64,000 nucleotides of DNA from Tubulanus polymorphus (lineage: Eukaryota; Nemertea; Palaeonemertea; Tubulaniformes; Tubulanidae): contig NC_134030.1 of assembly GCF_964204645.1 (NCBI RefSeq), positions 1,775,855-1,839,854 on the forward strand, read 5' to 3'. Positions 2,834-62,700 of this stretch are shown here, in pieces. The translations under genes and the position numbers were made by a program. Every line of letters begins with the position of its first letter. Position 1 is the first letter of the stretch. The notes beneath the pieces were generated by a model, which had not been told where the DNA came from, did not search any database, and worked only from the letters and a program-made list of their open reading frames with translations.

Positions 2834-5800
2834 TTATTGTGAATCGCCGCTATTGGTTTCAATATATTTCTCAACCTCGTCTCTACTCGATAGGATACAG
2901 TCGTTAACTCCGACTCCTGTGTACGACGAGCCCAACAAACTCAACGGTAAATCATTATCCTTCACGTAACTAAACGCATCGTCCAGTATCACAGAATGTC
3001 CAACATTATACTGAGCTATACAATCCTACAACGTAATTATATGATAAATTATTACTTAAAAGCGCTTTATATTATAAATCCGTCAAAACTCTAAAGATTT
3101 TGAAAAACTCTAAAGCTACTAAAGATTTTGAAATTCAATCAATACCAATATTGCCATCTTCAGAAATACTCAAGCACCTGTTTCAGTATTCCTGAAGATG
3201 ACTATTAGGATAAAGGTACAACGTTGAATCAACTACAATAGCTCAAAGGAAACATTTCAAACTCTTTTTATTGTTAGTGTGCAGGGATTTTATATCAACT
3301 TTACAACCCGGACTCAGAATGTTTTATCCATGGTTATAATGAGGACAACATCAGTATTCCTGAAGTTGACCATTAAGGATAAAGTCTAAACGTTGAATAA
3401 AATACACTTCTTCAAGGAGATCATTTCAAACTATTTTTATTCTTGTGCATGGATTTTATATTATCTTTACAACTCAAGACTGTGAAGAGCGTTTCAATAT
3501 TCGCTGTACAGAATATTTTTCTGAATGGAAATCTAAATCTGAATGGAATTTCAAAATGGAAAATATATTTTCGAACTGATGAAAAAAGAGAATGGTTTTG
3601 ATGAATTTATACCTTGTTGATGGTGACTTGAACATTGAGTGGATCTTTATCAATTCCCAGTTGATTATTCAATTCCTGTAGAGCTAATTGTTCTAAATGT
3701 TGACTAGAAACTTGATCGGGATCGCCGAAAAATTCTTCAAACCACGAACCTCCCATCATTACCTGAAAATTAAAACAAGTCTCAAGTTTGATCGAGGACA
3801 CAATTTAGTAGTGAATATGATCAAAGTGGATCTAGGGACCTTCCCACTGAGGTTGCCCTTCTTTTTGTCAAGACAGATATAGTTAAAACCATTGAATCTG
3901 ATCCACGCGGAATTTGCATCTTTTACGGTGGATTTCCTAAAAAATATCTTAACACCGACGGTGGGATTTATATCTGAGAAATGTATTTTCTTTCTTCTTC
4001 TGAACCTTGGCATTCCAATTTTCCAAGGGCCACCCTCGATACGTCTATGTCGGCAACAGTCGAAGTAGTCTTTGAACCCGCAGCTGTCAAGATGATGGAT
4101 CTATGTAATTACTTGACTATACATAACGTAGTTTATATTATGGGAAAATAAAGTCAGTTGTCTTATGATGTTGATTCAGTAAAGACGTGTTCCCCGCCGG
4201 TTTTACTAATCTTATCTTACGGACCTGGTCCAAATAAGTGGCAGCGCAGCCCACAGTCTATCTGTTACTGTGGATACTTACAGTAAGCCTTGTTGACGGA
4301 CGGTCAGTTCGATCGTGTTCAGGAAACAAACAAGAATCATAGATAACACCTAGAATATTTGAAGGTTCAATCGAGGGAACGAGATGTCCAAAACCCTGAA
4401 ATACATCAAACACACATTCAGCGTTAAACATAACTCAACTGAATAGTAATGACGGGAGAGGGAGAGTGCCCACTTGTTTGCCATCTCACAGGATCAATAA
4501 ATTATCTCTAGAGAATTCCAGTGCAGTCCGAGCCACAATAGGTCATTATATGAATAAGTTTGAGTAGGAAAATCTTTAGATATTTTTATGTGATAATGAG
4601 TGGCAATCCTCCATGTCAAGCACAGTCCAGGACATGTAATAACCATAGGCAATCAGCTCTTCCATGGCAAGCACAGTCCAGGGCATGTAATAACCATAGG
4701 CAATCAGCTCTTCCATGTCAAGCACAGTCCAGGGCATGTAATAACCATAGGCAATCAGCTCTTCCATGGCAAGCACAGTCCAGGGCATGTAATAACCATA
4801 GGCAATCAGCTCTTCCATGTCAAGCACAGTCCAGGGCATGTAATAACCATAGGCAATCAGCTCTTCCATGTCAAGCACAGTCCAGGGCATGTAATAACCA
4901 TAGGCAATCAGCTCTTCCATGTCAAGCACAGTCCAGGGCATGTAATAACCATAGGCAATCAGCTCTTCCATGTCAAGCACAGTCCAGGGCATGTAATAAT
5001 CAAAAAAGATTATGTGATGTTTCTTATTGAACTGGGGAAAGTATGAAACATCGGTAAAACAATACCTTGAACGGTAAAACCTCTCCATCATATTCGATAT
5101 TCAATGTCGCCACGGTAACGAACGGTATTTTACTCAGAGTTCGACTCAAATCACTTTCCGGTAAAATCTTCGACAATATATTCGAAGGGACTGTTGAAAA
5201 TAGATGCGCGCCTTCGAATTCACCTTTCGACGTCATCAACTAAAAATACAATTCAATTCCACAAATTTACAACAAATGTTTTTCTCCAGGGGCCAGTTGC
5301 ACAGTCGTGACTTAAGTCCAAAAGTGGTCTTAAATCTTAAGACTTCTCTTAAATTATTGGATTGGCTATAGAACTAAGTTGGTCTTAGACTGGTCTTAAG
5401 TCTAAGCCATGACTATGCAACCGGCCCCCAGGGTTTTAAGAGATCATTAAATCAAGCATTCCCTGATATATCCCTCGGATTTTCACATGAGGAAAATTTC
5501 TTTGATTGAATTCCTTGTGCCACTAATCACCAACAAGAACAACAAGACACCAAAAATTCAAATTCCCTGATTGAATTATAAGATATCCTCAGTGAGGGCT
5601 GCTTCTGATCAAGAGGTTCCTTGTGCCACTCGTCACCAGCAAGAACAACAAGACACCAAAACAGTCAAATTCCCTGATTAAATTATAAGATATCCTCAGC
5701 GAGGGTTTTTTCTTGTCCAGGATCCAGTTCCACAGTTGTGAGTTAAGATTTAACTCTGAGTTTACTCATTGAAAATGAACTAATTCTAACTCAGAGTTAA

Positions 5801-8249
5801 CTGTAACTCAGAACTGTGGAACTGAGTCCAGAGGTTCCTTGTGTCACTCATCACCAGCAAGAACAACAAGTCATCAAAAATAGATAGAACTCAATCAAAT
5901 TTGATTAGAGTTCTATGAAAAATCCAAGTTCCCTGACTTTTCCCCTGGTTTTTATTAAGAAGAGTCAAAACTGGGAATAAATCTAGAATTCCCTGATTTA
6001 CGGTGATCTTAACGAACTCTGATCACTTCGAAAGATAAGTTTTCAATCGATCTTACTTTGACAGTTTTAGTGTCGTCGTTGAAGGTGATATTTCTACACG
6101 GAGCTTCAGTAACAATCTCAACGTTAGAATCGCGTAAACTTTCCGCGATCGTTTCGCTTAATTGTTGAATTCCATTCTTTAATGACCAAACGGACCACAT
6201 TTCCTTCCTGGATCGAATCACCAATTCACTACGACTGGAACATTGCGGACCTACAAACAGAAGTTGTAGATTTTGTGGTTTCAAAATGATAAATTCTTTC
6301 GTATAATTTAATTGGAATTGTTGGATTTATTTAAAGAAGTAGTAGATTTCATCATAATTCATCACATATCTCATACCAGACACGGGTTTGGGAACAACGG
6401 CTAGGTACTAGACTATTGGTCCCCTAGAACCATTTACTACTGAATTCTAATCATATGGACTCAGTTCCACAGTTGTGAGTTATAGTTAACTCTGAGTTAA
6501 AATTAGTTAACTCAGAGTTAAGTTCCACAGTTCTGAGTTATAGTTAACTCTGAGTTAGAATTAGTTAACTCAGAGTTAAATGTTAACTCACAACTGTGGA
6601 ACTGGATCCTGGGGCCGGTTTTATAGACTGGTATTGCCCTTAACGCGGAGCTAACTCTCAATTGATAATGAATTGTGTAGAGATGTATGAAACCTTTTCA
6701 CTCAAATTGTCACCTGCTTTTCTCGATTTGATCATCCCTCTGAACACGGAACCGTGAAGTTGCTCGTGTTCAAATAGAGTCGGAGCTACAGATTTAATAC
6801 TTAAATTACGAATATCACCGGCATAAATTCCTCTAAACACTGCATCAGCCGCAAACTCAGCCAACTGAAATAAATAGAAATAACAAACCTGCGATGAACT
6901 CTGGTAATGGATTCAGGTTTAGTTAATTACTCTGGACCCAGTAACTCAAAACTGTGGGCTCCGCAATGAATTACACTGTCAAGACTTTAAGACCAGTCCA
7001 ACAGATAGCACGGATTTGACTACATAATGGCTATGTCCCTTTCTAAGACCATCTTAGTTCCAAAGCGTACGTAACAACTTTAGACTCAGGAATTAAGGCC
7101 ACTTCTAACTCAGTCACATTGGGACTACCCTAACATCATCTTGGTTCAGTTGCTTGAGAACAAGTCTAATGATTTTTGACACCCTTTTGGAATGTGCAAC
7201 TGGTTCCTGCATCCTAATCATTGGTGGTAAATTGTGAAAAAGTCCGGTTACTGACCAGATTCAAGTGAAACGATTTTCTTTGTTTCTCACCTCAGAACCA
7301 ACTCTACGAGAAATGAAATTATACACAGAATCATCGCTCAATGGTGGATCAGGAGCTGGGATGTTTCGTTCCTTCAGTATATTCCAGATTAAAGCCTGAC
7401 TGAACGGTGCATTCGTTCGGAATAGATTAAAGAATCCTAGAAAATGAAATCCATACATATATCAATGTTGTTTTCAATCTTTTAAATAATAGTAATAATT
7501 GTATCATCTATTCATCCAGACTGAAATGTTTCTAACTCTAGTATTTTAAATAAACATTATAGTCTTTCAACAATTGTCGGATTTCATATTTTCATCAGAA
7601 TGACACTAGGAATGGATTTGTGGCACGTACCATTGGGCATTTTATTAATTTGACCCTTGGCGTAAACATATCTGTTTTGAGCAGCTTCATGTCTGTTAGA
7701 TATGGCGAGAATTGACGATTCTAAACCCAATTCATCAGCCTGAAACAAAAAAGAACAATTAGAGTTGGAAAATGATCAATAATTGAGGGGTATAATTAAT
7801 GACTGGTTGAATTAGTCACCAGTTCTATAGTGTTGACCCCTGGTTTTCCGTAAGCCCGAAGACTTCTTGGCCCTCGTTCAAATATCGCTCCATTATCAGT
7901 TTTAACTGACTCCATCCAACCTCCTAGACGATCACTACCTTCTATTAATACTATCTGAAATAGATAAGAACGCCGGGTTAATTAGTAGCCGCAAGCTTCG
8001 GACACCGATACGTGCTGCCACCTACACGCAACCTGCGGCATGCACGCACGACCACGTCAGGTGCTGCTATCTGCGCACAGCCAGTGGCATGCGACTTTTT
8101 TAATCGGCAAAATGAAAACGTGAATAAAATGTTAATTTATAAATATCTGAGGCACTGACCTGACTAAATAGTGAGCCAGAAAACTTGCTGAGATAATGAG
8201 CGGCTGAAAGTCCAGCGATTCCACCGCCGAGAACGATTGCTTTAGACAT
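2834..8249 (-). CDS. PPOX: Protoporphyrinogen oxidase, 10 exons
   Basis: Oxidises protoporphyrinogen IX to protoporphyrin IX, the penultimate step of haem synthesis; family members are FAD enzymes of the mitochondrial inner membrane. Exons: 8160-8249, 7820-7954, 7631-7739, 7291-7436, 6714-6864, about 6027-6250, 5066-5239, 4282-4395, 3613-3762, 2834-3025. Phases agree throughout. Only the 3' edge of exon 6 is open (6018 or 6027, giving 497 or about 494 residues). The product starts MSKAIVLGGGIAGLSAAHYL, an N-terminal FAD-binding glycine motif at residues 8-13. Later blocks FERGPRSLR, RLTVMMGGSWFEEFF and SYTGVGVNDCI match family-conserved regions, the last near the C-terminal FAD site. Length is close to the human enzyme (477). 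Introns carry a 51-bp minisatellite and several palindromic elements. Confidence 0.95.
3150..3510 (+). repeat. Two tandem diverged units with hammerhead-like core
   Basis: Two copies of a unit of about 180 bp lie in the last PPOX intron. Each contains CAGTATTCCTGAAG followed by a GACTATTAGGAT-like stem sequence and (A)ACGTTGAAT. Both copies are degraded where an intact hammerhead core would read GAAAC. Related copies occur at 21130-21345, 32640-32700 and 63864-63996. Confidence 0.6.
4611..5000. repeat. 51-bp minisatellite, about 7.5 copies
   Basis: Nearly identical 51-bp units, some differing by CATGTC versus CATGGC, lie within PPOX intron 7. The period is 17 codons and three reading frames stay open, which produces spurious ORFs of 148-171 codons. 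They have no family resemblance and lie between PPOX exons, so I do not call them genes. Confidence 0.95.
5291..5427. mobile_element. Palindromic MITE, family A (137 bp)
   Basis: Ends GGCCAGTTGCACAG and CTATGCAACCGGCC are inverted repeats. Flanked on both sides by CCAGG (5286-5290 and 5428-5432), read as a 5-bp target duplication. The interior carries facing TTAAGAC/GTCTTAA blocks. It lies in a PPOX intron and is abutted by a dispersed repeat at 5434. Confidence 0.8.
5434..6000. repeat. Dispersed repeat cluster, interrupted by a MITE
   Basis: Three copies of a block containing TTCCTTGTGCCACT, then CACCAGCAAGAACAACAAG and AATTCCCTGA. Relatives occur at about 13675-13775 and 43045-43255 (reversed) and at 61135-61280. 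In several cases a CCWGG-flanked palindromic element abuts this repeat exactly, so the two may form composites. Confidence 0.7.
5722..5827. mobile_element. Palindromic MITE, family B (106 bp)
   Basis: Inverted ends ATCCAGTTCCACAG and CTGTGGAACTGAGT, with facing AACTCTGAGTT blocks inside. Flanks are CCAGG on the left (5717-5721) and CCAGA on the right (5828-5832), a one-mismatch 5-bp duplication. It splits the dispersed repeat in this PPOX intron. Confidence 0.8.
6457..6670. mobile_element. Double family-B palindrome followed by half of family D
   Basis: 6458-6607 holds a family-B element with an internal duplication: CAGTTCCACAGTT recurs twice before the closing AACTGTGGAACTG. Immediately after CCTGG comes GGCCGGTTTTATAGACTGG, the left half of another palindromic family (D) that is better preserved near 32740. 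No convincing duplication flanks the left end of the first element. Confidence 0.65.
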
Positions 8250-8657
8250 AGTTCAAGCTATAATACATGAACCTATATATTGACCATAGTAATCTACCGG
8301 GGCACCACCTACAGTGAAAATTATACACTTAAACATTATAGTTCATGCGCTAATCACTTCTCAAGCAACAGTCTCCTTGCAAAAATTGATACCTTCACAA
8401 AAAATAGATATTTCCAAGACACCAAAAACACAATATCCTCATCACCAGAATAACCATCACTCTTCAAGTTACATATCAAAAGAATTCCTCTTGCAAAGAG
8501 AAAGATTGCGCTCTCCAAGCGTCAAACATTAGTCTAGGGTCATCTTGATCCTCGCATTGAGACTGGAGACCGACTACAGCAAAACTGTCACTCAAAGAAT
8601 TTAAATAACGACAAAAATAATAAAATAGTTTTTTTACACTTGTGTTTTTCTTATTAT

Positions 8658-8663
8658 TTTATT
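8658..8663 (-). terminator. RPS25 poly(A) signal
   Basis: Minus-strand AATAAA about 32 bases beyond the RPS25 stop codon, a short 3' UTR typical of ribosomal protein genes. Confidence 0.75.
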
Positions 8664-8694
8664 TTGTACATAGAAATAGAATGTAACACATTTT

Positions 8695-10061
8695 TTATGT
8701 AGCTTCAGTTTTAGTCGTTCTTGTGTAGATGATCTGAGCTCGGTGTTTATCGACCAATCGGATTAAACCTACAAAAACACAAACAATCTGGGTGAAACAG
8801 CGAGAAATATTTAATTTTCAAACAACTGCTTTTGATTCATTTGGTAAAATGAAATCTGCATAAGAAAGAAAATAAGTACTAAATGCATCATCATAACAAG
8901 TTGAAGGAAATATTTCAGACCTAACTAATCGTCCTCAATACCCATTCGCTATACACTCGTAGCCCAAAATTTCCCCTTAATTCATTTTCACTTATTTGTC
9001 TTTGATAATGAGCGACTATTTTTAGGATCATCACTGGTGCCAGTTGATCCCAGTTATGGTAAGTCCACGCTGATCCTAGGGAAACTAGCCTCTAGGGAAA
9101 CTAGCTGTGGCATGGCGGATAAGGTGTTTGACTCACAACTGAGAGGTTGAGGGTTCGAATCCTAGTGAAACCATGCATTCAGGCAGGACACATATCAGTA
9201 CTTGTCGACTCACTGATTTAACAACAAGTCCGTACCTGGCAAAAATCTTCAGCATGTTGAAGTTGGCCAGTAATAGGTAGAACTAGAACTAGAACTGAAG
9301 AGGGGCTCAAAATTCGCAATTTCTTCCAGAAAATTCTCAACAATTCTCAAAGATTAGTATACAGGATTTTGAGATGAGACCGGAAGCAATCTAAGGATTC
9401 ACAAGTTTTTTGAGGCTGGGAGCAAGTACGACTTGATATACTTATAATAACCTTTAGATTGTAGTTCTTTCAGAGCAGCTCTCGCTAATGATCCGCGAAT
9501 CTTCAATCTTTCAGAGACGACAGACGGAGTTATCAATTTATAACTGGGAACTTCCTTGTACAGTTTATCGTAGGTACCCTTATCGAAGAGAACCAAGTTG
9601 TTCAACTTATCGCGAACTTTTCCCTTAGACCACTTCTACAAAATCAAAAAGGGAGACAATGTTTTAGGAACAAGCTATAGTTAGAACAAGGCAAAAACCT
9701 TATCAGTTGCAATGATCGAACTAACCTTCTTCTTAGCCTTTCCGCCGGACCCTTCCTTCTTCTTGGCCGGTACTTTCGAGGTCTTACCCCCTTTCGGGTC
9801 CTTGCCTTTCGGTGGCTAAAAAACAGACACGAGAAATAACTAAAAGTTCAATAAAGCGATAGCAGGTGGCGCCACCGTCTCAGTCGAAAAACACCTCGAT
9901 TAAACCCTTAAATTCACCAGGAAATCAGGGCTGTATCGGGTTTACATCACGGATAGTTAATAGAATATATACAGAAGTATTGTCTAAACTTCATTTAGCG
10001 ATAATTAAACAGTTATTTTAGGAATAAAGCACTAATGAACGTGTTAATTTCGACCTACCAT
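8695..10061 (-). CDS. RPS25: Ribosomal protein eS25, 4 exons, 116 aa
   Basis: Component of the 40S subunit. Exons: 10059-10061 (ATG only), 9726-9815, 9452-9635, 8695-8768; total 351 bp including stop. The N-terminus is a lysine-rich tail ([10 protein letters not shown]...KKK), followed by the conserved core [19 protein letters not shown] and [20 protein letters not shown], and ending [16 protein letters not shown] plus a short tail. Exon 3 reads on without splicing to a stop at 9399, giving a false C-terminus; the correct continuation is the last exon beyond a 683-bp intron that carries a SINE. The exon 3 donor (AAAG|GTTATT) is weak, but the phase fits and family conservation resumes exactly at the acceptor. 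Confidence 0.96.
9098..9298 (+). mobile_element. tRNA-derived SINE
   Basis: A tRNA-like head has an A-box-like TGGCGGATAAGG and a perfect B box GGTTCGAATCC about 35 bases downstream. It is followed by an unrelated body and a simple-repeat tail of tandem TAGAAC units at about 9278-9296. Head, body and microsatellite tail are the normal SINE plan. It sits in the last RPS25 intron, antisense to the gene. Confidence 0.7.
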
Positions 10062-10071
10062 GCTGCGAGTT

Positions 10072-10108
10072 CAATTACTGTGAAAAAGAGGCTCTACACG
10101 TGACGTCA
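10072..10108 (-). promoter_or_regulatory. RPS25 core promoter: CRE, E-box and 5'TOP tract
   Basis: Upstream of the RPS25 ATG, the palindromic CRE TGACGTCA (10101-10108) overlaps an E-box CACGTG (10097-10102). About ten bases closer to the gene, the minus strand reads CCTCTTTTTC, a C followed by pyrimidines as at the start of terminal-oligopyrimidine mRNAs. This predicts initiation near 10090 and growth-dependent translation; the start site itself is inferred. Confidence 0.6.
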
Positions 10109-10992
10109 CTGGATAGATGATAAAACACAAACTCGCATATGAACCGATGATGTATTGAGTTAACGTAATTAATCCATTTAACTAAAACAATTTGAGAATA
10201 TTTCTGAAAAGTGAATCAGAAGATCTATGAAAATTGAGAAATGTTTTGTTTTAGGAAATATTTACAGGTGTGACCATCGTGAAGATTTTCTCTACAACAA
10301 ACACTTGTTTGAAGCAATTGATTAACTGTTAATTGTAATTAATCAATTCGATACTAATAAAAATCAACGATTATTATAATCTTAATCATGACGTAATCTT
10401 TTTTCTATTCGAAAGTAAGAAAATATCTAGCGGTGCTGCCATCGTGCGGATATTGTCTACATTAAGTGACGTTTCCATCCAATCAGAACCTGGTGCTGGT
10501 GCTGCTGCTGCTGCAGCTACAGGGAATGGATGAGGAAGGGTGAAAATACTGAACCATACACCCTTTACCACTCTGAAGCAATCTATGCACCCTTTACCAC
10601 TGGATCGGGTAGGTTCAACTGACGCACGGCAAAACTTGTGGCGCCGGTTCAACTAACTGAGTCAGGCTCCAAAAAAAGTCCAACTAAAAAAAACCCATAA
10701 ACGAGAAAAGTAATTAACTGCACTATGTATGTTATGTTTGCTTTTAGTTTTAAAATCAAAAAAATTCCTGAGCATTTAAATTTAAGAAATAACCTGATAA
10801 CATGCATTACTTGTAGTGCATTTGGCTTTTCTTCAGCTTATTTTGATAAAAAAAAGAATTTAGGGCCTGAATACTGATTTTCTTTTTTGTGAATCTTGAT
10901 TTGAAATTATAATCTCAATGTGACGATCTTCACTTTAATTTCAGAATAAATAGAGAGCGGAGAAAATAGTAAAAGGAGGAAGAGATTCGAGA
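10109..10992. other. Intergenic region between RPS25 and the zinc-finger gene
   Basis: The two genes are divergent, so this stretch should hold both promoters. A splice acceptor (TTTAATTTCAG) at about 10944, 49 bases before the zinc-finger ATG, suggests an upstream noncoding exon of that gene. A short CTG/GCT repeat lies near 10493-10512. No other coding exon is visible. Confidence 0.5.
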
Positions 10993-13041: not shown

Positions 13042-14319
13042 TCGATCTGTTTTACCACCTGTTAATAACCCACAGTCCCAGTTTCATGAGAAAGTTTAAC
13101 TCAAATGTTTGGTTTGAATCGCTATATTGGTTACTTATGTGTTTATTGAAGGCATCAATACAAACTCATCCGTTTTAAGCTTTAACTTTTTTGTGAAACT
13201 GGACTCAGTTTTATAATGCTGTGAGATAAAAGCAGTTCATTATCCATGAATCCGGGGTTGCAGTCGCTGCTTACCGATAAATGGCAGATAAATACTGATG
13301 TATCAATGGACTTTTAATTGTCACTATGGCATTTATCCCCTGGTTTATTCTAACTAGCTTTCTAGCGACTGTAGCCCTGATGTTTACTCACAACAGCGTA
13401 ACTGGAGCCAGTTCCCCAGTTGTAAGTTTTGAAACGAGTTTCGATGAGTTCATTCCCAGGAAATTCTAAACTCGCAACCGTGGAACCGGGTCGAAGGTTA
13501 TAACAGATCAGTGAAAATCAGGAATTACGGATTTATTTAAGTGAAATTAATGAAAGTAAAGTTCTCTACATGATCCAGTCCCACAGTTGTGAGTTAGAGT
13601 TAACTCTGAGTTAAAATTAGTTCATTTTCAATGAGTCAAATCTTAACGCAGAACTGTGGAACTGGGTCCTGAGCCTTTTCTTGAAAAAAGTCAGGAAATT
13701 TTAGTTTGTGATGTTCTTGCTGGTGATGAGTGGCATGAATAGCTTCTCGAAACTGCCCTCACTCAGAATGTCAGTGTATTTTGAATCCTTGACCTGTAAG
13801 AATCATTGATTTATTCATTGTGCTATAATGTGCTTACCTCCAGCTTGGAGTACTCCAAGCCTCCAGTCATTTCCAGTGTTGTCAGTTAACTAACTCACCA
13901 ACTGTGAAACTTGGTGCTTAGATTGTTTAGATTGCTGTAATCTAATGATTTTGAATGTTCTGTTTTGTTTTTATAAAGCGCTTTGCTCTGTTAATAACGC
14001 TAACGGCTTTTGCCAAACATTCCTCGTGTTTTAAGATTATTTAAGTATAAATAAGGCAGGATTCCTTTAATCGTAAAATCCTTGAATGAGTGAAAATAGA
14101 TGTGATGATTTTGCTTTTAGATGTGATTTACGCTCAAGATTCTTCCTGTATTTTCCATGTCTTCCGTTTGTTATATTTAGAATCCATCATGGTTTCCATG
14201 TTCATGAAATATTCATTTAGGCGCGGTCAATTTAAGAAGATTTTCTTTAATTTACGCTTAACGTAAAATTCGACTTGGTTTTGATTATACGGTGAAACCT
14301 TGTTATAACGAACATCAGG

Positions 14320-14476
14320 GCTGGGTTTCATAGATGTGGAAGAAAAATAGTTACTGGGAACATTTTGAAATTCGTCAGTTATAACCATGGTTTCTCATTG
14401 TTACTATGGTGGTTGTTACCCAAATTGAGGATTTACCCCTTGGGATAACTTTGATACCCAGTCTATGAAACCGCGC
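14320..14476. mobile_element. Palindromic MITE, family C (157 bp)
   Basis: Ends GCTGGGTTTCATAG and CTATGAAACCGCGC. Flanked by TCAGG (14315-14319) and CCAGG (14477-14481). Its reverse complement is the copy at 61285-61441, which is also 157 bp. It is inserted in a pogo-like 71-bp unit immediately after AACATCAGG. Confidence 0.85.
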
Positions 14477-14541
14477 CCAGGGGACCTTTAAATCTGTTTG
14501 TTATAACTGATACAGTGGAACCTCGTTACAACAAAATTCGG

Positions 14542-14636
14542 GCAAAAAGCTTTAACTCTTAAATTGATTTAGTTTCTTCATTAATTCAGTTTATCTTAAA
14601 TCGATTTAGGCCTTAATCCTTTATGTGAAACTGGGC
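14542..14636. mobile_element. Palindromic MITE, family E
   Basis: The interior shares TTAACTCTTAAAT and TTCATTAATTCAGTTTATC with the intact copy at 52288-52392. Its right end GTGAAACTGGGC is followed by CCAGG, while the left end is eroded. It is also inserted in a pogo-like unit at the position equivalent to the family C element nearby. Confidence 0.8.
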
Positions 14637-15085
14637 CCAGGAGACCAGAAAATCTGTTCATTATAACTGATTGTTCGTTACATCTAGTATGGTAGTTTCC
14701 AGTGTCAAATTAATTTGTCTCATGTTTTTATACGCAATTGTTTTGTTTCTGAGTTCGTTGTAACATAACGTTTCACTGTAATATACTTGTATTATATAAA
14801 TGATAGGCACGAACATTTGCCTTCAGTGCCATAGTAAACCAGTGTGTCAATCATGTAATCATTACTCCGCCTCCTAGTGATAGTTGCTTCTAAAGTAGAT
14901 CGAGAAGGAGTCTGCGGCAGGTGAATGTTGTTGATATATTATATGTTGTTAGTTAGTGTTGTTGCGGTCTCTTGTCAAACTCCATAAAATAAAATCTATC
15001 TGAAATCGTCATCTATAGATTGTATTTTGTTGGTGAGTCTGGAACGAACCTGGCGCATTGATCTTACTCAACAACACAATTTTAT

Positions 15086-15195
15086 CTGTAGCCTGTAACC
15101 TGCACCCCTTCAGACAGTCAGCAGCCTGGACCCTGCACCCCTTCAGACAGTCAGCAGCCTGGACCCTGCTCCTCTATCAGACTGGACCCTGTACC
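15086..15195. repeat. 37-bp tandem, about 3 copies
   Basis: Copies of a unit containing CAGCCTGGACCCTGCACCCC followed by TTCAGACAGT, the last one truncated. Intergenic. Confidence 0.8.
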
Positions 15196-15299
15196 CCTAC
15201 ATTGATGAACCACCCTTTTAGACATTGATAAGGATTGCCAACATTACAAAAGAAGTCACTTCTCTGTCCTTAGATGGTCGGTCAACTGATAGTACCGGT

Positions 15300-15452
15300 A
15301 AGGGGTCATTCATTTATTACGTACACATCAAGGGAGACGGGAGGTGTACTGTAATGCTTTATGTATATGAAAAAATGGCCGATTTTGTGTACAGAGGGGG
15401 AGGGGGGTGAAAAATTCAAATTTTATGCGTACGTAATAAATGAATGATCCCT
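15300..15452. mobile_element. MITE with 20-bp inverted ends
   Basis: Left end GGGGTCATTCATTTATTACG matches in reverse the right end ACGTAATAAATGAATGATCC. The interior is short and noncoding, with a G-rich patch at 15396-15408. A nonautonomous DNA transposon; I cannot place the superfamily. Confidence 0.75.
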
Positions 15453-15568
15453 AAGTCACCTCTGATTGTTGATCAAAAGCTACCGTCATCCTCTGATGGT
15501 TAAAAGACTTTTCTATTTCGATTTTCCATTAATATCATAAACTATTCAATACTTTCTTGAAAAACGAT

Positions 15569-15647: not shown

Positions 15648-18600
15648 CTACATTCCTGCGAATCCTAGTTTATCCACCTGTTCAATAGCCAATTGTAGAT
15701 TACTATCAAATAATTCACATCTGAAAATAGAAAGAATGTCGAGTTATAGAGGAGCAGGGACTGACTAATCTAAAGAATAAAAGCCACGTGCCCGGGCGCA
15801 GAAATCTGCTAGCCATACTGTTGTATCAATTGGGAAAGAGCTTTGACACGTAAAAATGCAATAGCCTGGCAGACAAGTGATAACAATAACCTACTAACTT
15901 TGCCCTAAAAATAATATACTTGTCCCAGGCAATCGGACAAGTGCTTAGATCGGACCCTAGAGGAACCGTGTGTGAAATCAATAAACATGAAAACAGGATA
16001 GACTACTGTGTCGGTGAACTAGTTTTATTTGAAGTACGATCTTTCGTTACTAGTGTATGGAGTAGCTTTATCGGGTAAATGAGTAAACAGGTGGTCACAG
16101 GTGGTGTAGGGTTAACTGATTTTATCAGAAATAAATTAAGTTTTCCAACGAGAGAAATCCCACAAAAAATTATTAATAATCAGTTCAGCTAAATACTATT
16201 AGCATCATACCGGGTAATTTTCGCTACTAGTGTATGGAGTAGCTTTATCGGGTAAATGAGTAAAACAGGAGTTATAGCATAGGTGAAGTGATTTCAGGGT
16301 AGCTTCCAGGGTAGTCTTACCTGATAGGCATATCTATTGAGTAGAATGGATTCTTCAGAGCGAAATCACCGTAAATTTCATACAATTTTCGCAGTAATAA
16401 ATCAATACCGGATTGTTTAGGGTCGGCTAAAACAATAAACTTCACTCCTAGAAACAAGACAGAAACCGAGAAACAACTTCAATAACCAAACACTGGATAT
16501 GAGTAGAGAGATGAGTGGAGAGTGTGGCAGAAGAGGGGAGAGTGAAGAAGAGAGAGAGAGAGAGGAGAGGGAGAGATAGAGAGGGGAGAGAGAGAGAGAG
16601 GGGAGAGGGAGAGAGAGGGAGAGGGGAGAGAGAGAGAGGGGAGAGGGAAGGAGAGAGAGAGAGGGGAGAGGAAGGTTACATTGGAAATCAGTAAAGAGGA
16701 GAGTGAGGTTTGTTGATTAAAGAGAGCTCCATGTTGCATAAGGACTGACTGGAATCTATGATCGATTGACTGCTCTAATGAAACTGTCAAGTACATGAAC
16801 TACAAGTACATTACACCTAGACAATAACAAAATGTAACATCATAAGGGGGTGAATAGAGGAGGTGAGAGGGTTAATACAGCAGGGGGTTTATAACACTGA
16901 CCTGTTAATGTTTGTGAACAGCACAATTTAAACACATCCGTTTCTAAAACTTCGATTCCAGATGATTTGTGTTCGGGAGATAATTGAGAACCGATCGCGA
17001 ATAATCTGAAAAACCATCGATAATAATAACATTAATCATATTTGAATTGAGGATATCATAATGTGAGATGTGCTCACGCAACCAGAACATGCTAATATAA
17101 AACCCCACAATAACAATAAATAGAGTCAGAAAATGGTTCCTTGAGTTAGTAGTTCATTTCAAAATCTCTACGTATTTTTTATTAAGGAATATCAATTCTT
17201 GATTACAAACTACCGATTCTGTATTGTTTAGAAACGCCTGTCTAAAGGTCATTTATGACTTGGGGCTGGTTGCATAGTCAGGGCTTAGACTTAAAGACTG
17301 CTCGAAGACCAACTTAGTTCTATTGCCAATCTAACAACTTAGACAAGTCATTAGATTTAAGACGACTTTTGGTCTTAAAAGTCTTGTCTATGGAACTGGC
17401 CCCTGGTGCTGGCCCCAGATCATAACCAAAGTCCGGGTACTGCTACTCCTGATTTTAGGGTTTGATACTTACGAATGAAACATACTCGCTAATACAATTT
17501 TCTCGTTTGTTGAAAGTCGCGGCCGTCCAAATTTTATCGCTATCGGATAATTCTCTTCATTAGCGATCACTTCCAGGATTTCACGACCATCTTCTAACTG
17601 TCGCCCGGCAGCGGGAACTCCGTTTATACCTAGCACCGTGTGTCCAACTACAAATACAACAATTACAGAAACATCAATCTTAGAGTTTATTTATAGACAG
17701 ACGGAGACAGGAGCAAAGCCAAGGGTAGTCAGTAACCTGTCTGTGGTTTAGTTTCACGATCGGATATTATCACAAACCACAGTCAGGAATGGGAAGGTCA
17801 TTTTTGTATGAAATCTTCGTCAGCCAATTTGACTGACGAGTAATTTGCCTGGCATTTCATTGTCTCTTATGATATCCGTCTAATTTTTGTTCTAATCGAC
17901 ACACAACAGATTCGTAGTTTGTCTGATACCTATAACACCTCACCTGACGTTCTTAATCCATGTGCAAATCGGCCGTAAAGTGAGAGTAAATTTCCGTCCA
18001 GTCAACAGCTGCCATTTTGAAAATTACTGGAGGTGCTGGCACCTGTGGACTGAGGCCAGGACAACAGCACAAACTAACAAAGCGAAACGACGAAATTAAA
18101 AAAAAATTAAGAAATCAACACTTATTCATATTTTTCTTTTACCAGAAATTTATTGTTTCATTATTTGTTATGGAAAACACGAAGATTTGAAATACAAGTT
18201 GGAAAACCATCAAAAATAAAAATTGTCGTTTCGTCTTGAAAGTTTTATATAAATCCTTGTAGGTCCCCTTGTCTTATCATGCCACATGTGCAATACAGAG
18301 AAATGGCGGCCAATGGCGAAATTTGTGGAGAAATTAATTAATTTCTCAAAATAATGCTGATTAATCACTCGAAACGTACATAAAATTGGATTATTTCGAA
18401 AGGTACCTGTGTTAGTTTGTGAATAAAGCCATTAATTGTGGACTGAAGTGAATAGAAAGTATATTTTTGAAGTGTTACTTTTTTCAACCGTGTTTTGGTC
18501 CTTGTCATCCCTAACGTTGGTATAAGCCCATCCGATTATAAAAAGCTTACTACCAACGATTAGGTAACTAACTAGGCCAAGGGGAGGAGGAGGCTGTTAG

Positions 18601-22500: not shown

Positions 22501-23301
22501 CCGGACAGCTTAAATCGATTCGGGGGATAATAATCTTTGTGATATTGGGCCCTAACCGAGAAGTGTCCAATTACCAAAAGAACAGTAACAGGAGACACGC
22601 TGAAACTCTAAAGTGAAATTAATTCATTTCTAATGATTTATCCACCAGGACAAATTTGGATTCATAACTGTATTAAACAAACTGGGAGACTTCTTCACCC
22701 CGAGCTATTGTTAAAACTGTTGTTTGTTTTTTTTTTTGGTATTTTCTCAGGGATGGCCGCTGAATTTGCGAATGCGATTGGCGCTCGAAAGTTGGTACTC
22801 ACACATTTCAGTCAACGTTACAGATCAATCTCTGAAATAATTCGAGTACGTTTTTTATACGCTTAAATCCTAGGTTTCATTTCACACAATTTGTTATCAT
22901 AAATACGGAGTGGTGTTAAATCTTAAGACTGGTCTTACGTTTCTAGATTGGCTATAGAACCAAAATGGTCTTAAATTCATAGATTGGCTATAGAACCAAA
23001 ATGGTCTTAAATTCATAGATTGGTTATAGAACCAAAATGGTCTTAAATTCATAGATTGGCTATAGAACCTTAAAACCCGAGCCCGAGTCATAGAAATCAG
23101 AATTGAAGAATTCATCTGTATTTATATTGTAATGATTTGTTATATGTTGTCCGCACTGTGTTTCAGGATGGCGATGATAGCGTACAAACACTGGTCGATG
23201 AAGCTCAACTCGCGTTTAATGGCGAAGAAGTTATCGCTGCAGATGATTTCATGGTTTTACCGATCCCGCGTAGAAAAACTATCGAGGAAAACAATTCCTG
23301 A
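19589..23301 (+). CDS. ELAC1: Short-form tRNase Z (ELAC1), 8 exons, 363 aa
   Basis: Metallo-beta-lactamase-fold endonuclease that trims tRNA 3' trailers; ELAC1-type enzymes are also reported to process tRNAs cleaved during ribosome rescue. Exons: 19589-19667, 19992-20110, 20510-20698, 20930-21024, 21403-21601, 22127-22307, 22751-22845, 23167-23301; total 364 codons with stop, the same protein length as human ELAC1 (363). It starts [18 protein letters not shown]. The zinc-binding HLHGDH is at residues 61-66, followed by ILGD and [20 protein letters not shown] and LTHFSQRY with the last metal-site His at about 306. All key residues are present. Intron 5 looks U12-type. Confidence 0.96.
19698..19860. 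mobile_element. Probable hAT-type MITE fragment
   Basis: The right end CCTGGATCCACCCCTGG and an eroded left end CGGATCTAGGG are inverted copies of the CAGGGG(C/T)GGATCCAGG end common to animal hAT-like elements. Interior AT-rich and noncoding. In ELAC1 intron 1. Confidence 0.5.
21602..22126 (+). other. Putative U12-type intron of ELAC1
   Basis: The donor reads GTATCCTTAA, matching the minor-spliceosome 5' site GTATCCTT. About 20 bases before the acceptor (GTTGAATAG) lies TTCCTTCAC, one base from the U12 branch-site consensus TTCCTTRAY. Splicing here restores [15 protein letters not shown], which aligns with the human protein; the neighbouring alternatives do not. The intron also carries a tRNA-like sequence. 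Confidence 0.75.
21848..21925 (+). mobile_element. tRNA-like sequence, probable SINE head or pseudogene
   Basis: An A-box-like TGGTCTAGTGGTAAGC and a B box GGTTCAAGTCC are correctly spaced. The anticodon stem has a mismatch and an undersized loop, and no acceptor stem pairs, so a working tRNA is unlikely. It lies inside the U12-type ELAC1 intron. Confidence 0.5.
22914..23075. repeat. Tandem derived from family-A MITE interior
   Basis: Repeats of about 51 bp with ATAGATTGGCTATAGAACC and AAAATGGTCTTAAATTC, the same words found inside family-A palindromic elements. In the last ELAC1 intron. Confidence 0.8.
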
Positions 23302-27143: not shown

Positions 27144-38372
<11,229 letters not shown>

Positions 38373-39104: not shown

Positions 39105-39150
39105 ATTAGCCAATCAGCGCTCGATTCTCTCATGAACACCGTAATTCAAG

Positions 39151-39160: not shown

Positions 39161-55029
<15,869 letters not shown>

Positions 55030-55559
55030 ATTCGTCACCGCGACGACAATGACTATTATTAATAAAAACATTGTGAGTAGTAGATCTCACCCGGCCCGCC
55101 TGCCCGCCCGCGCCCGACCGCTTCACGTAGAGAGCTTACCGACTGTGATTATTGTAGTTACCGTGGTTACCAGTGTATCCGGAGGAACTATACCGCGTAT
55201 TGTCATCCATCCAGCTACATCAGTAACAACTGTTCGTGTCATCTCAGTAGCAACGCGTTGCGCCCGACGATAACGGTTGTCATTGTTGTCAGCGGTGTGA
55301 AACACAATGAAGATCTGTTCAACGATGTTTAGTATGAATGAAAGAGCGAGGCGGCTGAATTCTCCTCCCCGGATTATCAATCACTCCCCCTCCCTCTCCC
55401 CTCCCTCTCTCCTCCCTCTCCCCCTCCCTCCCTCACACTGTATGGTGTGAACAGTGTAACTACTGTAGGCAAACATTCAATGCATTCTATTAGAGATATT
55501 TAATATGATGTAGATATTCACTAGAATTATGTACAGTATGATATAAGACAACTTTACAA

Positions 55560-56300
55560 TGATAATATAGAGACTCAGAGTTAGACTCTGTGTCCTGATT
55601 CACAAGTCAGACTTGGAGAAGACTCTGTGACCAGAGTCTCTTATCTGACTTAACAGTCAGACTCAGAGTTAGACTCTGTGTCCTGATTCACAAGTCAGAC
55701 TTGGAGAAGACTCTGTGACCAGAGTCTCTTATCTGACTTAACAGTCAGACTCAGAGTTAGACTCTGTGTCCTGATTCACAAGTCAAACTTGGAGAAGACT
55801 CTGTGACCAGAGTCTCTTACCTGACTTAAGAGTCAGACTCAGGGTTAGACTCTGTGTCCTGATTCACAAGTCAAACTTGGAGAAGACTCTGTGACCAGAG
55901 TCTCTTACCTGACTTAAGAGTCAGACTCAGAGTTAGACTCTGTGTCCTGATTCACAAGTCAGACTTGGAGAAGACTCTGTGACCAGAGTCTCTTACCTGA
56001 CTTAACAGTCAGACTCAGAGTTAGACTCTGTGTCCTGATTCACAAGTCAGACTTGGAGAAGACTCTATGACCAGAGTCTCTTACCTGACTTAAGAGTCAG
56101 ACTCAGAGTTAGACTCTGTGTCCTGATTCACAAGTCAAACTTGGAGAAGACTCTGTGACCAGAGGCTCTTACCTGACTTAAGAGTCAGACTCAGAGTTGG
56201 ACTCTGTGTCCTGATTCACAAGTCAAACTTGGAGAAGACTCTATGACCAGAGTCTCTTACCTGACTTAAGAGTCAGACTCGGAGAAGACCTGACTCAAGA
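55560..56300. repeat. 88-bp minisatellite, about 8 copies, hairpin-forming
   Basis: Units contain AGTCAGACTCAGAGTTAGAC, TCTGTGTCCTGATTCACAAG and GAAGACTCTGTGACCAGAGT. Each carries AGACTCTG-TGAC-CAGAGTCT, a hairpin with an 8-bp stem. It begins about 530 bp after the aralar stop and could be transcribed in the 3' UTR. Confidence 0.93.
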
Positions 56301-58975
56301 ATCAGGTAGATATATTCGGTATAGAACCCCCGCCCTTCTTTACCATCTGTGTGATCCTATTCCCTGCTTAGATTTGTTACATTTATTTATAAAGAATTCT
56401 TCGAGTAGAAATGATTGTTTAGTTAGAATTGAATGGATTGAGCTTGATTAGGGGACAGGGGATTGTTCGCATACAAAATTAGAATATTACAGTAGTAATA
56501 ATATAACACGATAAAATGTATCAGAGTTTAGGGGATTACGGTAATTTGATAATAAGTTTAGGAAGATTTTCTGAATTTCTCGAGTTCCACTCCATATTAT
56601 TTTCTCTTGTAACCTTCCTAGCTTAACGTGTAAAAGTAGAGACGATCTTTCAAACGAGCTTAAACTGGATTTCAACTTGAACAAACTTATTTTACACATG
56701 ATTTGGATTACCGGTAAGCAAGTTTGATTGCTGTATCTAACTACAGCAGACTGCGTGTTTCTAGGATTGTCAGGTGCCCTGGACTCAGCTTGCCTTGGAG
56801 TCAATTGCCTTGGACTATCATGCGTCCTGACAAAAATCTTTACAACTACCCTACCCCAATTCATGCGATAATGACCCATCGTCGCTCCAACTGCCCCGCA
56901 GTTCACTTGCCTGACTGGTACCGCGAGATCCATGGCACCGGCGCAGTCTACTGTTAAAGAATTATTTTGCTACGCAATATTTGAATAAGTAAAGATACCG
57001 TAGAAAATTTGTAAATGAAATATTTGAAATTTCTATTGATGATTTTTCTTTTTAATCGACTCAATCATAAAAACTTGTAACATCATCACAGAATATTCTA
57101 CGCAAAGAGTGAATAGATATTGTTTTGTGTGTGTAGATAATACAGCGGGTAATTTATTAAAGAGTTCTCTCAATGGGAACTCTCTGCTCTCTCTCTCACT
57201 CTCTCTGAACTGGGAGTTCACGTGTTTGTGCCAAAAAGAATTAATTGCAAGCAGCTGTGAATTTAGGATCTCCTCTAAAAAACCCTCATGAGACCCAGAG
57301 CCTTACTGGGTCCTGGATTATCTCATTTGAGACAAAATTTCCGAATAGTGTATTTTGTCTCAAATTTAATGAAAATTTAGGTGATTGAAGCGCGGTAACC
57401 CAGTGCCACCTGGTGGATTTTTGCTGAATCTTCGCTTCCCTCAGTAGCGTTGCCGGTATCCCATTTAACAACTTTAAAGTCAGTCAGTAACCTGTCCGTC
57501 ATTTAGCCTCACAATCGGATATTTTCACAATCCGAATATAAGAGCTTACCAACGATGATTCATGAAAAACTTTAGAGACCTATCTTAAGATTGGACTTAA
57601 GTTACAACTACTGTGGAACTGGGTCGCGTTGTTTTAGTGGAAAATAAGATTATAAATTATTATATCTACTACGTATATTAGAGAGCTCTTTACTAATGAA
57701 TTACTTAAAAAGAAAATATGTAATAAATAAAAGTTAGGTATAATTAATTAGTACTGTGCTGTTTTAACGATAGTTTAGAGTGTAGAGCCTCTCGTTTATT
57801 AAGATTTATTTGTTTTTTGTAGAGATATAAATGTTATTTCAGTGCATTGTCATGACACGCGAAATACTTTGTACAAAATTTTAAATCTGGTTACAAAATA
57901 AAATTTATTACTTTACGGATTTTTTCGTGCGTATTTTTAACTTTTTCTAGAAGAGTTTTAGGACAATGGATTCGAACTCTTGACCTCCGACCAGCAAGCG
58001 GCGACCAGCGATTTCTACAGATATTGATTCAAACCCTGAATATTTGACAACGAAGCGTATCCACAATCCTCAAAGGACTCTGATAAAGATGAGCTGTCTT
58101 CAAGGGAGGTCCTTTATCCACAACCCTCTCTAGTATAGAATGAAATAAGTTAAACTGACGAAATCCACATCATGAAAAACCAAAATTTCAAATATTGAAT
58201 TCATACTCAACTTTTTTATTCATTCTTTATCAAACATATCTTTATTTCACGCTTTGAATTCGACAAAAATTCACGAAAAGAATTTTTTTTAATATACGAT
58301 GACATTAAACGTAGAAAAACAAGGCATCATCACGCACAGTAATAATGAGTGAAATATTGAACACATGACGGTACCGTAATTACAGTTTCACTTAATTACT
58401 AACTCAAGTTAAATCATCGTCAGATAAATCGTCAAATTACTGAAGTCATCTCTATCTTTGGGTACCAACTTATATATCCAAATCAATTTGCCAAGTGTGC
58501 GATAAATCATCACTTTTTCCACAGCAGTCCCCAAAATAATGAGTTAGGCTAAACAAAAATGATACCTTGTTTCTCCGCAGCGGCCGGGTCATTTTTGTAA
58601 AATATGATAAAATTTATAAACAGTTCATTTCTATAGCGGCCAGGTCTGTAATGGTAAAATTTATCACGATTTTAAAAAAAGTAATGTATAGGGTAGATAG
58701 GCGGCCGGCCGGGTCAACATTTAAGCTCAGCAGAGCGGAGAAACAAGGCATCAATTTTGTTTTGCCTTATCTGAGGTTGAATGACCATTAAAGACTCCTC
58801 TTAATTCGAAACAATGAGGACGTATTAATGTTTGTTCTCGAGTAGTTGGGCGTGATACGTCTTATAGATAATGGAATTTAGATCTCATTCTGTTGCAGAA
58901 AGAGTTCAAGTTAAGAGGAGTCAGTTGACTGTATTTTACTTCAAGCAATTTAACGAAGCACTAAAACGATTGTGC

Positions 58976-59231
58976 CCCAGCAAGGGCAGATCTAGGATAT
59001 TTGGAAGGTATTTCTCGGATAAAGTAACGAAGTCAAAAACCTCTATTGGGTATTCCTCTTGGTTCCACCCGCGGTATTGGATATTTTTGGAGAAATACAT
59101 CTGAAACGTTGCAATCGCCGAGAGGATGAGCATCAAATTTACAGGTTAACAATATCAGTCTTGACGAAAAGGGCCATCACAATGGGACCTTCCCGAGAAC
59201 ACCCCCTAAATCCACCAATCCACCCCTGCCC
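58976..59231. mobile_element. Possible hAT-type MITE
   Basis: Left GGGCAGATCTAGGATATT and right CCTAAATCCACCAATCCACC, followed by CCTGCCC, form imperfect inverted ends of the GG(C/T)GGATCTAGG type. Interior noncoding. Confidence 0.45.
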
Positions 59232-59714
59232 AGCGAAGAGGAAGATAATATAAGATACTCATTTGATGAGTCAAACTACATGTAGTCGATGGAAGCACAG
59301 AAAGAATATCGGTTTTCATGGTGCTCATGATTCAGCATCACCTCAGGTGATGACGACTCTACTGGATTTAATACAATTAACAAACGTTACCACCATATTC
59401 TGGTAGAGCTTCAAAATCAGTTACAAAAATACGCATTTTACAAATATCATTAACAGAAAAAAACAGAGCAAATAAGTCCAGACCATTGAGGTGATGATAG
59501 TGTGAAAAGAGAGAGAGAGCATTTTATAAAGTATTTCTAAGCACAGAAATGGTGGAAAAATTTCTAACCATCTCCAACAACCTCCCACCCCCACACCACA
59601 TATAGACAAACTCCCACCCACCCACACCACTTGCAGCAGAATACTTTATAAAGAGCCTCCTCCGTGAAGTGAGAGCACAGATTTTTACAAACAATCACTC
59701 GTTGTGAAGTAAGA

Positions 59715-62700
59715 TCAAGATTCACGCGATAATCGCTGTATAACTTTCTGATAGTTAGCGACTGATTCCTCGAACTCTTTCTGTAAATAATTCATACGTT
59801 GTTCAGTGGTGAGATTATTCATCGCAGCCATCAGTTCATTCTCTTGTAAAACCTTATTGTATTTACTCATATCATTACGAGATTTCTGAAATAAACATAT
59901 CATAGATTAGATATAAGAGAGAGATCAGTGGAGAGAGAGCAAGAGGGAGAGGGAGTGAGAGGAGGGAGAGGAGAGTGATAGGAGGGTGAGAGTGACGAAG
60001 GAAGGGAGAGAGTGAGGGAGAAGAGGGAGAGGAGAGAGTGAGAGGAGGGTGAGAGGGACGAAGGGAGAGAGTGAGGGAGAGGGGAGAGTGAGAGGAGGGC
60101 GAGAGGGATGAAGGGAGAGAGTGAGGGAGAGGGGAGAGAGTGAGAGGAGGGCGAGAGGGACGAAGGGAGAGAGTGAGAGGAGGGTGAGAGGGACGAAGGG
60201 AGAGAGTGAGGGAGAGGGCAGAGAGAGTGAGAGGAGGGCGAGGGGGACGAAGGAAAAAGAGGGAGTGAGAGGAGGTTGAAAGGGAAAGAGAACAAGACAG
60301 CAAGAGGGAGAGGAGAACGAGCAAAGGAGAAAAGGGAGAGAAGGGTAAGAGGGAGGGTGAAAGGAAGAAAAGATAGTCATTGCAAATACCAAATAATATG
60401 CGAGGTTCGCTTTTATTGCATCAAAACCTGATTACAGGAAGCTTAAAATATTTGCTGAGTAACAACTCTTGGGTCACAGAGTAAATTTTACACAACAATT
60501 CCTACATTCATGGAGCTCATCAGATCAGAAAGAGTATATATTTATCATCCTCACCTGAAATGGTTGATTGATACGTTTTTTAACGTCTAATCTGTACAGT
60601 TTAAACTTCTTCTCATTGTGTTCGTCGGTCGCTTGCAGACGCAAAATTTCATAAACTCTTCGAGCTTGTTTCTAAAACAAATAAAATGCCAGAAAAAATT
60701 TACTCGATTGATTTCCATCAGATGTGCAGATTCAAATTGCAATACACCTACACCATAGTGCAGTATCTGAATTGATCTTAACACTTTCAGTGTGTCTGCA
60801 CTGCAGTGCGACGAGTACATTGCATCAGTAAGCAGAATGTTCAAATTCATATATTGATAAGTCAGCACTGAAACGATTAAATAGAGTTTTCTCCTAACCT
60901 TGTTGATTTTTAATTCAGTTTGAGCTTGTTTCGCCATCTCCGCTGTGAACCCTTCGTGTAAACGATTCTCCTGGAAACTCGACAGTTTACGACAATTTCG
61001 TGCGTCGACGAAATCTCGTAAACGCTGAAAATCTTCCGACGGATCTTCAACTGAAAATAACGATCAGCGAAATTAAGTTATCGATAGAAATATGAAACTT
61101 ATTAACTGAATATGAAATATTATTCACAGGGCTCTGACAGATTAGGGAAATTTCCCTGACCCTTGACCGAAAAATCCCTAATAAAATTATAAGATATCCT
61201 CAGTGGATGCTGCTTCTTATCAAGAGGTTCCTTGTGCCACTCATCACAAGCAAGAACAAGACCCAAAAAATTCAAATTCCCAGGGCCCGGTTTCATAGAC
61301 TGGTATCAAAGTTATCCCTAGGGATAACTCCTAAATCTGGTTAACAACCACCATAGTAACAATGAGAAACCATGGTTATAACTGACAAATTTCAAAGAGG
61401 TTTCCAGGGACTATTTTGCTTGCACATCTATGAAACCAAGCCCAGAACTTTACGCAGATCAACAAAAGAACAAAATGCCCTGATTTTCCTTGCAGGAGAA
61501 AGGAATGTAGTAGTTCTTACCAGTAATATCCAGTATTTCATCTCTAGTTTTCATCTCGTTATAAAACGTCTGCAGCAGTTGGCAGCCGTGACCTTGTTTT
61601 TGAAACGGCGGTAAGATCAACACTTGGCTGATTCGAGGTCGGAATTTCTCCGGATACGCGTAGTAACGATACGTCGTCATGTATCCGACTGTTGCGTACA
61701 TCGTTTCACCATCGCGTTTATACTTCTCAAACCTAGCAACAATAACAACAATTACAACAGTTATAATCCATCAAATTTGAGCTCAGTTCATTATTTAAAA
61801 TCACAGATGACTAAATGAGAACAATAGGAACAGTTCTACGGTCTTCCCCTTTCAGACTATTGGTTAAAGTTAAAATAAGCACCATCTTAGAATCTTCTCT
61901 TAATCAAACTCACAGCTGAGGAACTGGTTGAAGAACTGTGGAACTGAGTCCTGAACTGTGGAACTGTGTCCAGAACTGTAGAACTGGTCAAAGTACTGTG
62001 GAACTGGGTTCAGAACTGTGGAACTGAGTCCTGAACTGTGGAACTGAGTCCTGAACTGTGTCCAGAACTGAGGAACCGGTTGAAGAACTGTGGAACTGAG
62101 TCCTGAACTGTGGAACTGTGTCCAGAACTGTAGAACTGGTCAAAGTACTGTGGAACTGGGTTCAGAACTGTGGAACTGAGTCCTGAACTGTGGAACTGAG
62201 TCCTGAACTGTGTCCAGAACTGAGGAACTGGTTGAAGAACTGTGGAACTGAGTCCTGAACTGTGGAACTGTGTCCAGAACTGTAGAACTGGTCAAAGTAC
62301 TGTGGAACTGGGTTCAGAACTGTGGAACTGAGTCCTGAACTGTGGAACTGAGTCCTGAACTGTGTCCAGAACTGAGGAACTGGTTGAAGAACTGTGGAAC
62401 TGAGTCCTGAACTGTGTCCAGAACTGAGGAACTGGTTGAAGAACTGTGGAACTGAGTCCTGAACTGTGGAACTGAGTCCTGAACTGTGTCCAGAACTGAG
62501 GAACTGGTTGAAGAACTGTGGAACTGAGTCCTGAACTGTGTCCAGAACTGAGGAACTGGTTGAAGAACTGTGGAACTGAGTCCTGAACTGTGGAACTGAG
62601 TCCTGAACTGAGTCCTGAACTGTGGAACTGAGTCCAGTAACTGTGGAACTGGTCAAAGAACTGTGGAACTGAGTCCAGAACTGTAGAACTGGATCTTGAA

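What the first reader, a model, noticed from the sequence alone, without database searches (positions are those of the whole stretch)
5286..61446. A group of palindromic MITE families sharing ends and a CCWGG 5-bp target duplication
Twelve short elements (5291-5427, 5722-5827, 14320-14476, 14542-14636, 17265-17401, 32838-32943, 43261-43432, 51411-51480, 51796-51931, 52288-52392, 52712-52847, 61285-61441) fall into at least four families by interior and length (about 137, 106, 157, 105 bp). All have ends close to G(G/Y)CC(A/G)GTTNCAYAG, and nearly all have flanks matching CCAGG or CCTGG. Flanks are identical at 5291, 32838, 51796 and 52288 and one mismatch apart in most others. Different interiors with common ends and target suggest one unseen transposase mobilising several families. 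I know of no eukaryotic superfamily defined by CCWGG duplications.
Basis: partly seen in the sequence, partly recalled or inferred. Interest (0 to 1): 0.78.

Follow-up and report, generated by a model that had tools for sequence, protein, structure and literature searches.

The report
Harbinger-type mini-transposons with CWG duplications
The short palindromic elements are ordinary miniature copies of a known animal transposon group (NuwaI, a PIF/Harbinger relative) that duplicates three bases, CWG, and not five; unexpectedly, about 30% of insertions carry A on one side and T on the other, as if the jumping DNA brings three bases of its old site with it.

Summary
The elements are real, but the reading of them needs correcting. 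Eleven of the twelve have both ends; 14541-14637 has lost its left end. They belong to at least four MITE families with hundreds to thousands of copies in a 268-Mb animal genome. The duplication is 3 bp, CWG. Autonomous relatives with the same ends encode a DDE_Tnp_4/HTH transposase and a Myb/SANT protein. This is the described NuwaI group of the PHIS (PIF/Harbinger) superfamily, and CCWGG is the core of the known Harbinger3_DR target. The MITE families match different transposase lineages, not one. One feature is unexpected: the middle base of CWG differs between the two sides in 41 of 136 insertions (30%). The rate does not depend on age, and three such copies have contiguous empty sites. 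Best explanation: the element leaves its donor site with a 3-nt CWG overhang that is sometimes kept at the new site. This matches what is reported for mPing.

The parts
5287..5431 (.). B-type (about 137 bp) MITE 5290-5428 with CAG/CAG duplication
5718..5831 (.). A-type (106 bp) MITE 5721-5828 with CAG/CAG; target c-CAG-a
14316..14480 (.). C-type (157 bp) MITE 14319-14477, CAG/CAG, inserted in a 71-bp satellite unit; target t-CAG-g
14538..14640 (.). D-type (105 bp) MITE 14541-14637, left TIR missing, inserted at the same position of the next satellite unit
17260..17405 (.). B-type MITE 17263-17402, TTG/CTG (left C to T)
32834..32947 (.). A-type MITE 32837-32944, CAG/CAG
43257..43436 (.). B-related MITE 43260-43433 with an internal 36-bp repeat, CTG/CTG, target c-CTG-a
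51407..51484 (.). Short A-type derivative 51410-51481, CAG/CAG, inserted in the last unit of the 71-bp satellite; target t-CAG-g
51792..51935 (.). B-type MITE 51795-51932, CAG/CAG
52284..52396 (.). D-type (105 bp) MITE 52287-52393, CTG/CTG
52708..52851 (.). B-type MITE 52711-52848, discordant duplication CTG/CAG
61281..61445 (.). C-type MITE 61284-61442, CAG/CAG, target c-CAG-a
48717..51411 (.). 71-bp satellite array (38 units) whose AACTTCAGG motif is the unoccupied target of three of the MITEs: one CAG, no CCAGG

Best explanation
These are non-autonomous MITEs of the NuwaI group of PIF/Harbinger-like (PHIS) DNA transposons. NuwaI-type DDE transposases encoded elsewhere in the same genome, probably together with a Myb/SANT helper, mobilise them by cut and paste. 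Shown: insertion is at a palindromic target TAAACHYCWGRDGTTTA, and CWG is duplicated as 3 bp. Shown: the middle base of the two CWG copies differs in about 30% of insertions. Inferred: the transposase cuts the donor CWG with a 3-nt stagger, so the excised element keeps 5'-CWG tails. At the new site the tail pairs with the target's CWG overhang through C and G. Where the donor and target middle bases differ, the mismatch is settled either to the target (like an ordinary duplication) or to the donor base, which gives CAG on one side and CTG on the other.
For: 3-bp duplication: outer positions match left/right only at the chance rate (76 observed against 77.5 expected, 80 against 78.1; n=136), and the inner C and G belong to the element. 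Empty sites hold a single CWG, often t-CAG-g or c-CAG-c. Autonomous elements with the same ends and CTG/CTG duplications: L061 (4.79 kb) and L215 (3.6 kb), with DDE_Tnp_4, HTH_Tnp_4 and Myb/SANT. MITE-to-autonomous subterminal matches: A106 with L061, B136 with L220, C157 with L222. The target logo fits the Harbinger3_DR target. Discordance: AA 54, TT 41, AT 24, TA 17, with non-A/T middle bases only 4 of 278. It is seen in all four families (14/52, 11/40, 9/25, 7/19) and is independent of divergence (Mann-Whitney p=0.80). Three discordant copies with contiguous paralogous empty sites: L145, L093, L188. In each, one side keeps the target base and the other does not. Literature: mPing excises by staggered cleavage of its TSDs (PMC4561436), and Pong-excised mPing carries the donor TTA/TAA into Cas9-cut sites (PMC11254759).
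Against: The overhang step is inferred from end products only. For mPing with altered TCA flanks in yeast, 45 of 46 new insertions lay in TTA/TAA and one in TCA (PMC4561436), so retention there is rare or absent. The expected weak inheritance of the middle base among close relatives was not detected (low power). One member (L178) of a duplicated D105 insertion has CTG where the other 14 have CAG on the left, so some change after insertion does occur. No reference NuwaI transposases were available for a phylogenetic test.
Confidence: 0.62

Rival explanations
1. Plain NuwaI MITEs with ordinary 3-bp CWG duplications; the middle-base discordance arose after insertion by point mutation.
For: A fully ordinary reading of the elements. 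L178 shows that a single A to T change can occur in a duplicated copy.
Against: Of 278 middle bases only 4 are not A/T, while 41 of 136 pairs differ by an A/T transversion (p about 4e-21 even for an assumed 5% rate). No rise with divergence: 13/37, 13/42, 14/39 and 12/39 over divergence quartiles.
Confidence: 0.04
2. Flank-limited gene conversion or ectopic recombination between copies exchanges the middle base after insertion.
For: CWG plus the element is shared by all copies, so a conversion tract could include the W and stop at the unique flank. L178 could be such a case.
Against: About 60% of copies would have to be converted at one end in 100-160-bp elements. Discordance does not rise with age. 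Exchange of flanks is excluded where contiguous empty sites exist.
Confidence: 0.12
3. Hairpin (quasi-palindrome) correction: CAG...CTG extends the perfect inverted repeat, so cruciform repair turns concordant into discordant flanks.
For: The elements are near-palindromes, and discordant W makes the flanks complementary.
Against: Fixed TIR mismatches one to a few bases further in are not corrected: 0/25 at C157 position 5, 1/40 at B136 position 13, 7/52 at A106 position 2. The outer bases show no excess complementarity in discordant copies (14 observed, 16.9 expected).
Confidence: 0.03
4. One reading: an unrecognised superfamily with a 5-bp CCWGG duplication.
For: In the window most flanks read CCWGG on both sides.
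Against: Outer positions match at chance rate; empty sites read TCAGG, CCAGC, TCTGA or CCTGC; the autonomous partners are DDE_Tnp_4 plus Myb/SANT elements.
Confidence: 0.01

Closest known systems
NuwaI group of the PHIS superfamily (Han et al. 2015, PMC4482050)
   Same: CWG duplication confirmed by empty sites, short G-rich TIRs, DDE transposase plus Myb/SANT ORF, autonomous length near 4.5 kb, animals
   Different: That paper reports CWG duplications without mentioning discordant middle bases and says MITEs may have been missed; here four MITE families dominate, and terminal bases vary (GGG, GGC, GGT, GAC, GAT)
Harbinger3_DR of zebrafish (review PMC3016246, citing Sinzelle et al. 2008)
   Same: Palindromic target AAACACCWGGTCTTT, close to TAAACHYCWGRDGTTTA found here
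   Different: Sequence relationship of the transposases not tested here
mPing/Ping/Pong (Tourist, PIF/Harbinger) of rice (PMC4561436, PMC11254759)
   Same: 3-bp near-palindromic TSD with a free middle base (TWA and CWG), two-protein system, evidence that donor TSD bases leave with the element
   Different: TSD is TTA/TAA; in yeast 45 of 46 insertions of a TCA-flanked donor showed the target triplet
piggyBac (from general knowledge)
   Same: Excised element carries flanking target bases as 5' overhangs that pair with the target overhang
   Different: TTAA is fully palindromic, so carry-over would be invisible; unrelated transposase

Membership tests
NuwaI (PHIS) | 3-bp CWG target duplication, confirmed by empty sites | tested here: met
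   the middle base is discordant in 30%
NuwaI (PHIS) | Transposase with a DDE domain of the Harbinger type and no extra domain | tested here: met
   PF13359 and PF13613 matches in L061 and L215, weaker in L217
NuwaI (PHIS) | Second ORF with a Myb/SANT domain | tested here: met
   PF13873 in L061 (2.7e-16) and L215 (9e-15); not found in the one L217 minus-strand ORF scanned
NuwaI (PHIS) | TIR of 12-61 bp, usually starting GGG | tested here: inconclusive
   TIR about 15 bp and more; B136 and several autonomous ends start GGG, others GGC, GGT, GAC or GAT
NuwaI (PHIS) | Autonomous length near 4.5 kb | tested here: met
   4.79 kb (L061), 3.6 kb (L215)
NuwaI (PHIS) | Transposase falls in the Nuwa clade | not tested
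   no reference NuwaI sequences were at hand
PIF/Harbinger in the narrow sense | TWA duplication | tested here: not met
ISL2EU | 2-bp AT/TA duplication and a YqaJ protein | tested here: not met
   CWG duplication and Myb/SANT partner
NuwaII | C|TNA|G target | tested here: not met
   target logo
New superfamily with a 5-bp CCWGG duplication | Five duplicated bases; empty site with a single CCWGG | tested here: not met

The most novel reading that the evidence does not exclude
In natural (free) transposition of NuwaI elements the excised DNA keeps the donor's 3-nt CWG as overhangs, and these are sealed into the target in a large share of insertions. The so-called duplication is then partly imported: about 30% of all copies, at every age, have one CAG and one CTG. 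By a simple steady-state model, about 0.43 of the ends at which donor and target bases differ keep the donor base.
Probability: 0.58. Interest if true: 0.55.

Novelty: new member of a known kind. Interest (0 to 1): 0.42.

Why it matters
The elements themselves are a known kind, so the claim of a new superfamily falls. The discordant middle base is a natural record of how PIF/Harbinger-type elements join their target. It turns an open mechanistic question (does the element carry its donor overhang into the new site?) into something that can be counted in genome sequence. It also warns that annotation pipelines which demand identical TSDs would lose about 30% of such insertions.

Tried and rejected
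A 5-bp duplication (rejected). Point mutation, hairpin correction and recombination as causes of discordance (and the empty sites). First candidates for the autonomous partner, L031-L060: ISL2EU-like elements with YqaJ ORFs, and Harbinger-like ones whose left ends are other sequences. A nearest-neighbour test for inheritance of the middle base found no signal. A first query for a control MITE was typed wrongly and is not the window's sequence; its empty result is void, and it was repeated correctly. Full-length patterns with sets of letters are not accepted. Sinzelle et al. 2008 is not held. Part of the first joined-flank search was saturated by a repeat next to L106.

Full report
OBSERVATION. 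The twelve listed stretches exist and are near-palindromic short elements with common ends. In the window's genome (G000, 267.8 Mb, 77 contigs) the pattern CWGGGYCCRGTTNCAYAG has 1,562 exact matches and its reversed control none. Four families were followed genome-wide: A (106 bp), B (136-137 bp), C (157 bp), D (105 bp), with 2168, 2556, 646 and 586 candidate places. Element 14541-14637 has lost its left end.

LENGTH OF THE DUPLICATION. In the window the mismatches between left and right flanks fall mainly on the first base of the left CCWGG and the last base of the right one, which suggests that the inner G and C belong to the element. I tested this on 148 copies of three families, extended to 136 independent insertions of four families with intact CNG and A/T middle bases. 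At the outer positions left and right agree exactly as often as independent draws would (76 against 77.5 expected; 80 against 78.1). The base after the left CWG is G in 132 of 136 and the base before the right CWG is C in 130 of 136, whatever the target. Empty sites settle it. The 71-bp satellite at 48717-51411 carries the unoccupied motif AACTT-CAG-G, and three of the window's elements sit at exactly this CAG in satellite units, two of them in neighbouring units at 14.3-14.6 kb. Copy L163 (C4:24173379) has five paralogous empty sites reading C/T-CAG-C. L093 and L188 have empty sites T-CAG-G and T-CTG-A. None shows a duplicated CCWGG.

TARGET. The joined target of 119 non-nested insertions is a weak palindrome TAAACHYCWGRDGTTTA. 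A review gives the Harbinger3_DR target as AAACACCWGGTCTTT (PMC3016246). CCWGG is therefore the core of a known preference.

AUTONOMOUS ELEMENTS. Crossing the TIR places with DDE_Tnp_4 hits gave L061 (C1:17790200-17796900). The element at L061:1589-6378 is flanked by CTG/CTG, with DDE_Tnp_4 and HTH_Tnp_4 in forward exons and a Myb/SANT ORF on the reverse strand. A protein search found relatives from 95% down to about 40% identity. L215 (61%) is a second full element, CTG/CTG, 3.6 kb, with the same two genes. The upstream ends of L217, L218, L220, L222 and L223 also start next to CWG. A-type MITEs share 40 bp (90%) with L061, B-type 40 bp (95%) with L220, C-type the 5' end of L222; the D-type link to L221 is only 17 bp. 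So several related transposase lineages, not one, match the MITE families. CWG duplication, G-rich TIR, DDE plus Myb/SANT and length define NuwaI (PMC4482050). Clade membership was not tested.

DISCORDANT MIDDLE BASE. The two CWG copies should be identical if the gap is filled in by synthesis. They are AA 54, TT 41, AT 24, TA 17, so 41 of 136 (30%) differ. Mutation does not explain this: only 4 of 278 middle bases are not A/T, and discordance is flat over divergence quartiles (p=0.80). All four families show it (14/52, 11/40, 9/25, 7/19). Hairpin correction is rejected because fixed TIR mismatches stay uncorrected. Exchange of flanks is rejected for three discordant copies whose flanks are contiguous in paralogous empty sites: L145 (CAG/CTG, two empty sites CTG), L093 (CTG/CAG, two empty sites CAG) and L188 (CAG/CTG, empty site CTG). 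In each, one side is the target base and the other is not. As a rough control, another TIR family of this genome with a 3-bp duplication, although more diverged, has identical triplets in 10 of 13 copies; its superfamily was not determined.

MECHANISM. mPing is reported to excise by staggered cleavage of its TSDs, leaving 5' overhangs (PMC4561436). In Cas9-targeted insertion the donor TTA/TAA is reported to travel with mPing (PMC11254759). If the NuwaI element likewise keeps 5'-CWG tails, the tail pairs with the target's CWG overhang at C and G, with a W:W mismatch when donor and target differ. If each end keeps the donor base with probability r, the steady-state discordant fraction is r/(1+r); 0.30 gives r of about 0.43. 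This last step is inference. Against it stands the mPing experiment with TCA-flanked donors, where 45 of 46 insertions lay in TTA/TAA (PMC4561436).

VERDICT. The high, age-independent discordance of the CWG middle base is a real and, in the literature I could search, unreported feature with a testable explanation.

Noticed in passing
window 61916-62746, 27370-27916: Minisatellite arrays whose unit is a MITE terminal repeat (CTGTGGAACTGGGTCCAGAA, 20 bp; AACTGTGGAACTGGATCCAG within 40 bp). Other arrays at 28200-28917, 22930-23069 and 46864-47072 resemble MITE sequence. The MITEs seem to seed tandem repeats.
   Followed up: partly
L177, L178, L180, L181, L190, L196, L205, L207-L214: A D-type MITE inserted inside an A-type MITE forms a composite found in at least 15 fetched copies (C54, C10, C7, C6 and C4), several near contig ends: the composite itself has been multiplied.
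   Followed up: partly
L052-L060 and three further places: An ISL2EU-like family (DDE transposase plus YqaJ exonuclease) present in at least 12 copies with identical transposase scores and open frames, the fetched ones 99.9-100% identical, hence very recently active.
   Followed up: no
window 15302-15451: Another multi-copy TIR family (GGGGTCATTCATTT ends, about 150-165 bp, 1076 candidate places) with a 3-bp duplication of loose sequence; superfamily not determined.
   Followed up: partly
window 48717-51411: 71-bp satellite of 38 units; its CAG is a repeated target of the MITEs.
   Followed up: yes
   Followed up: partly
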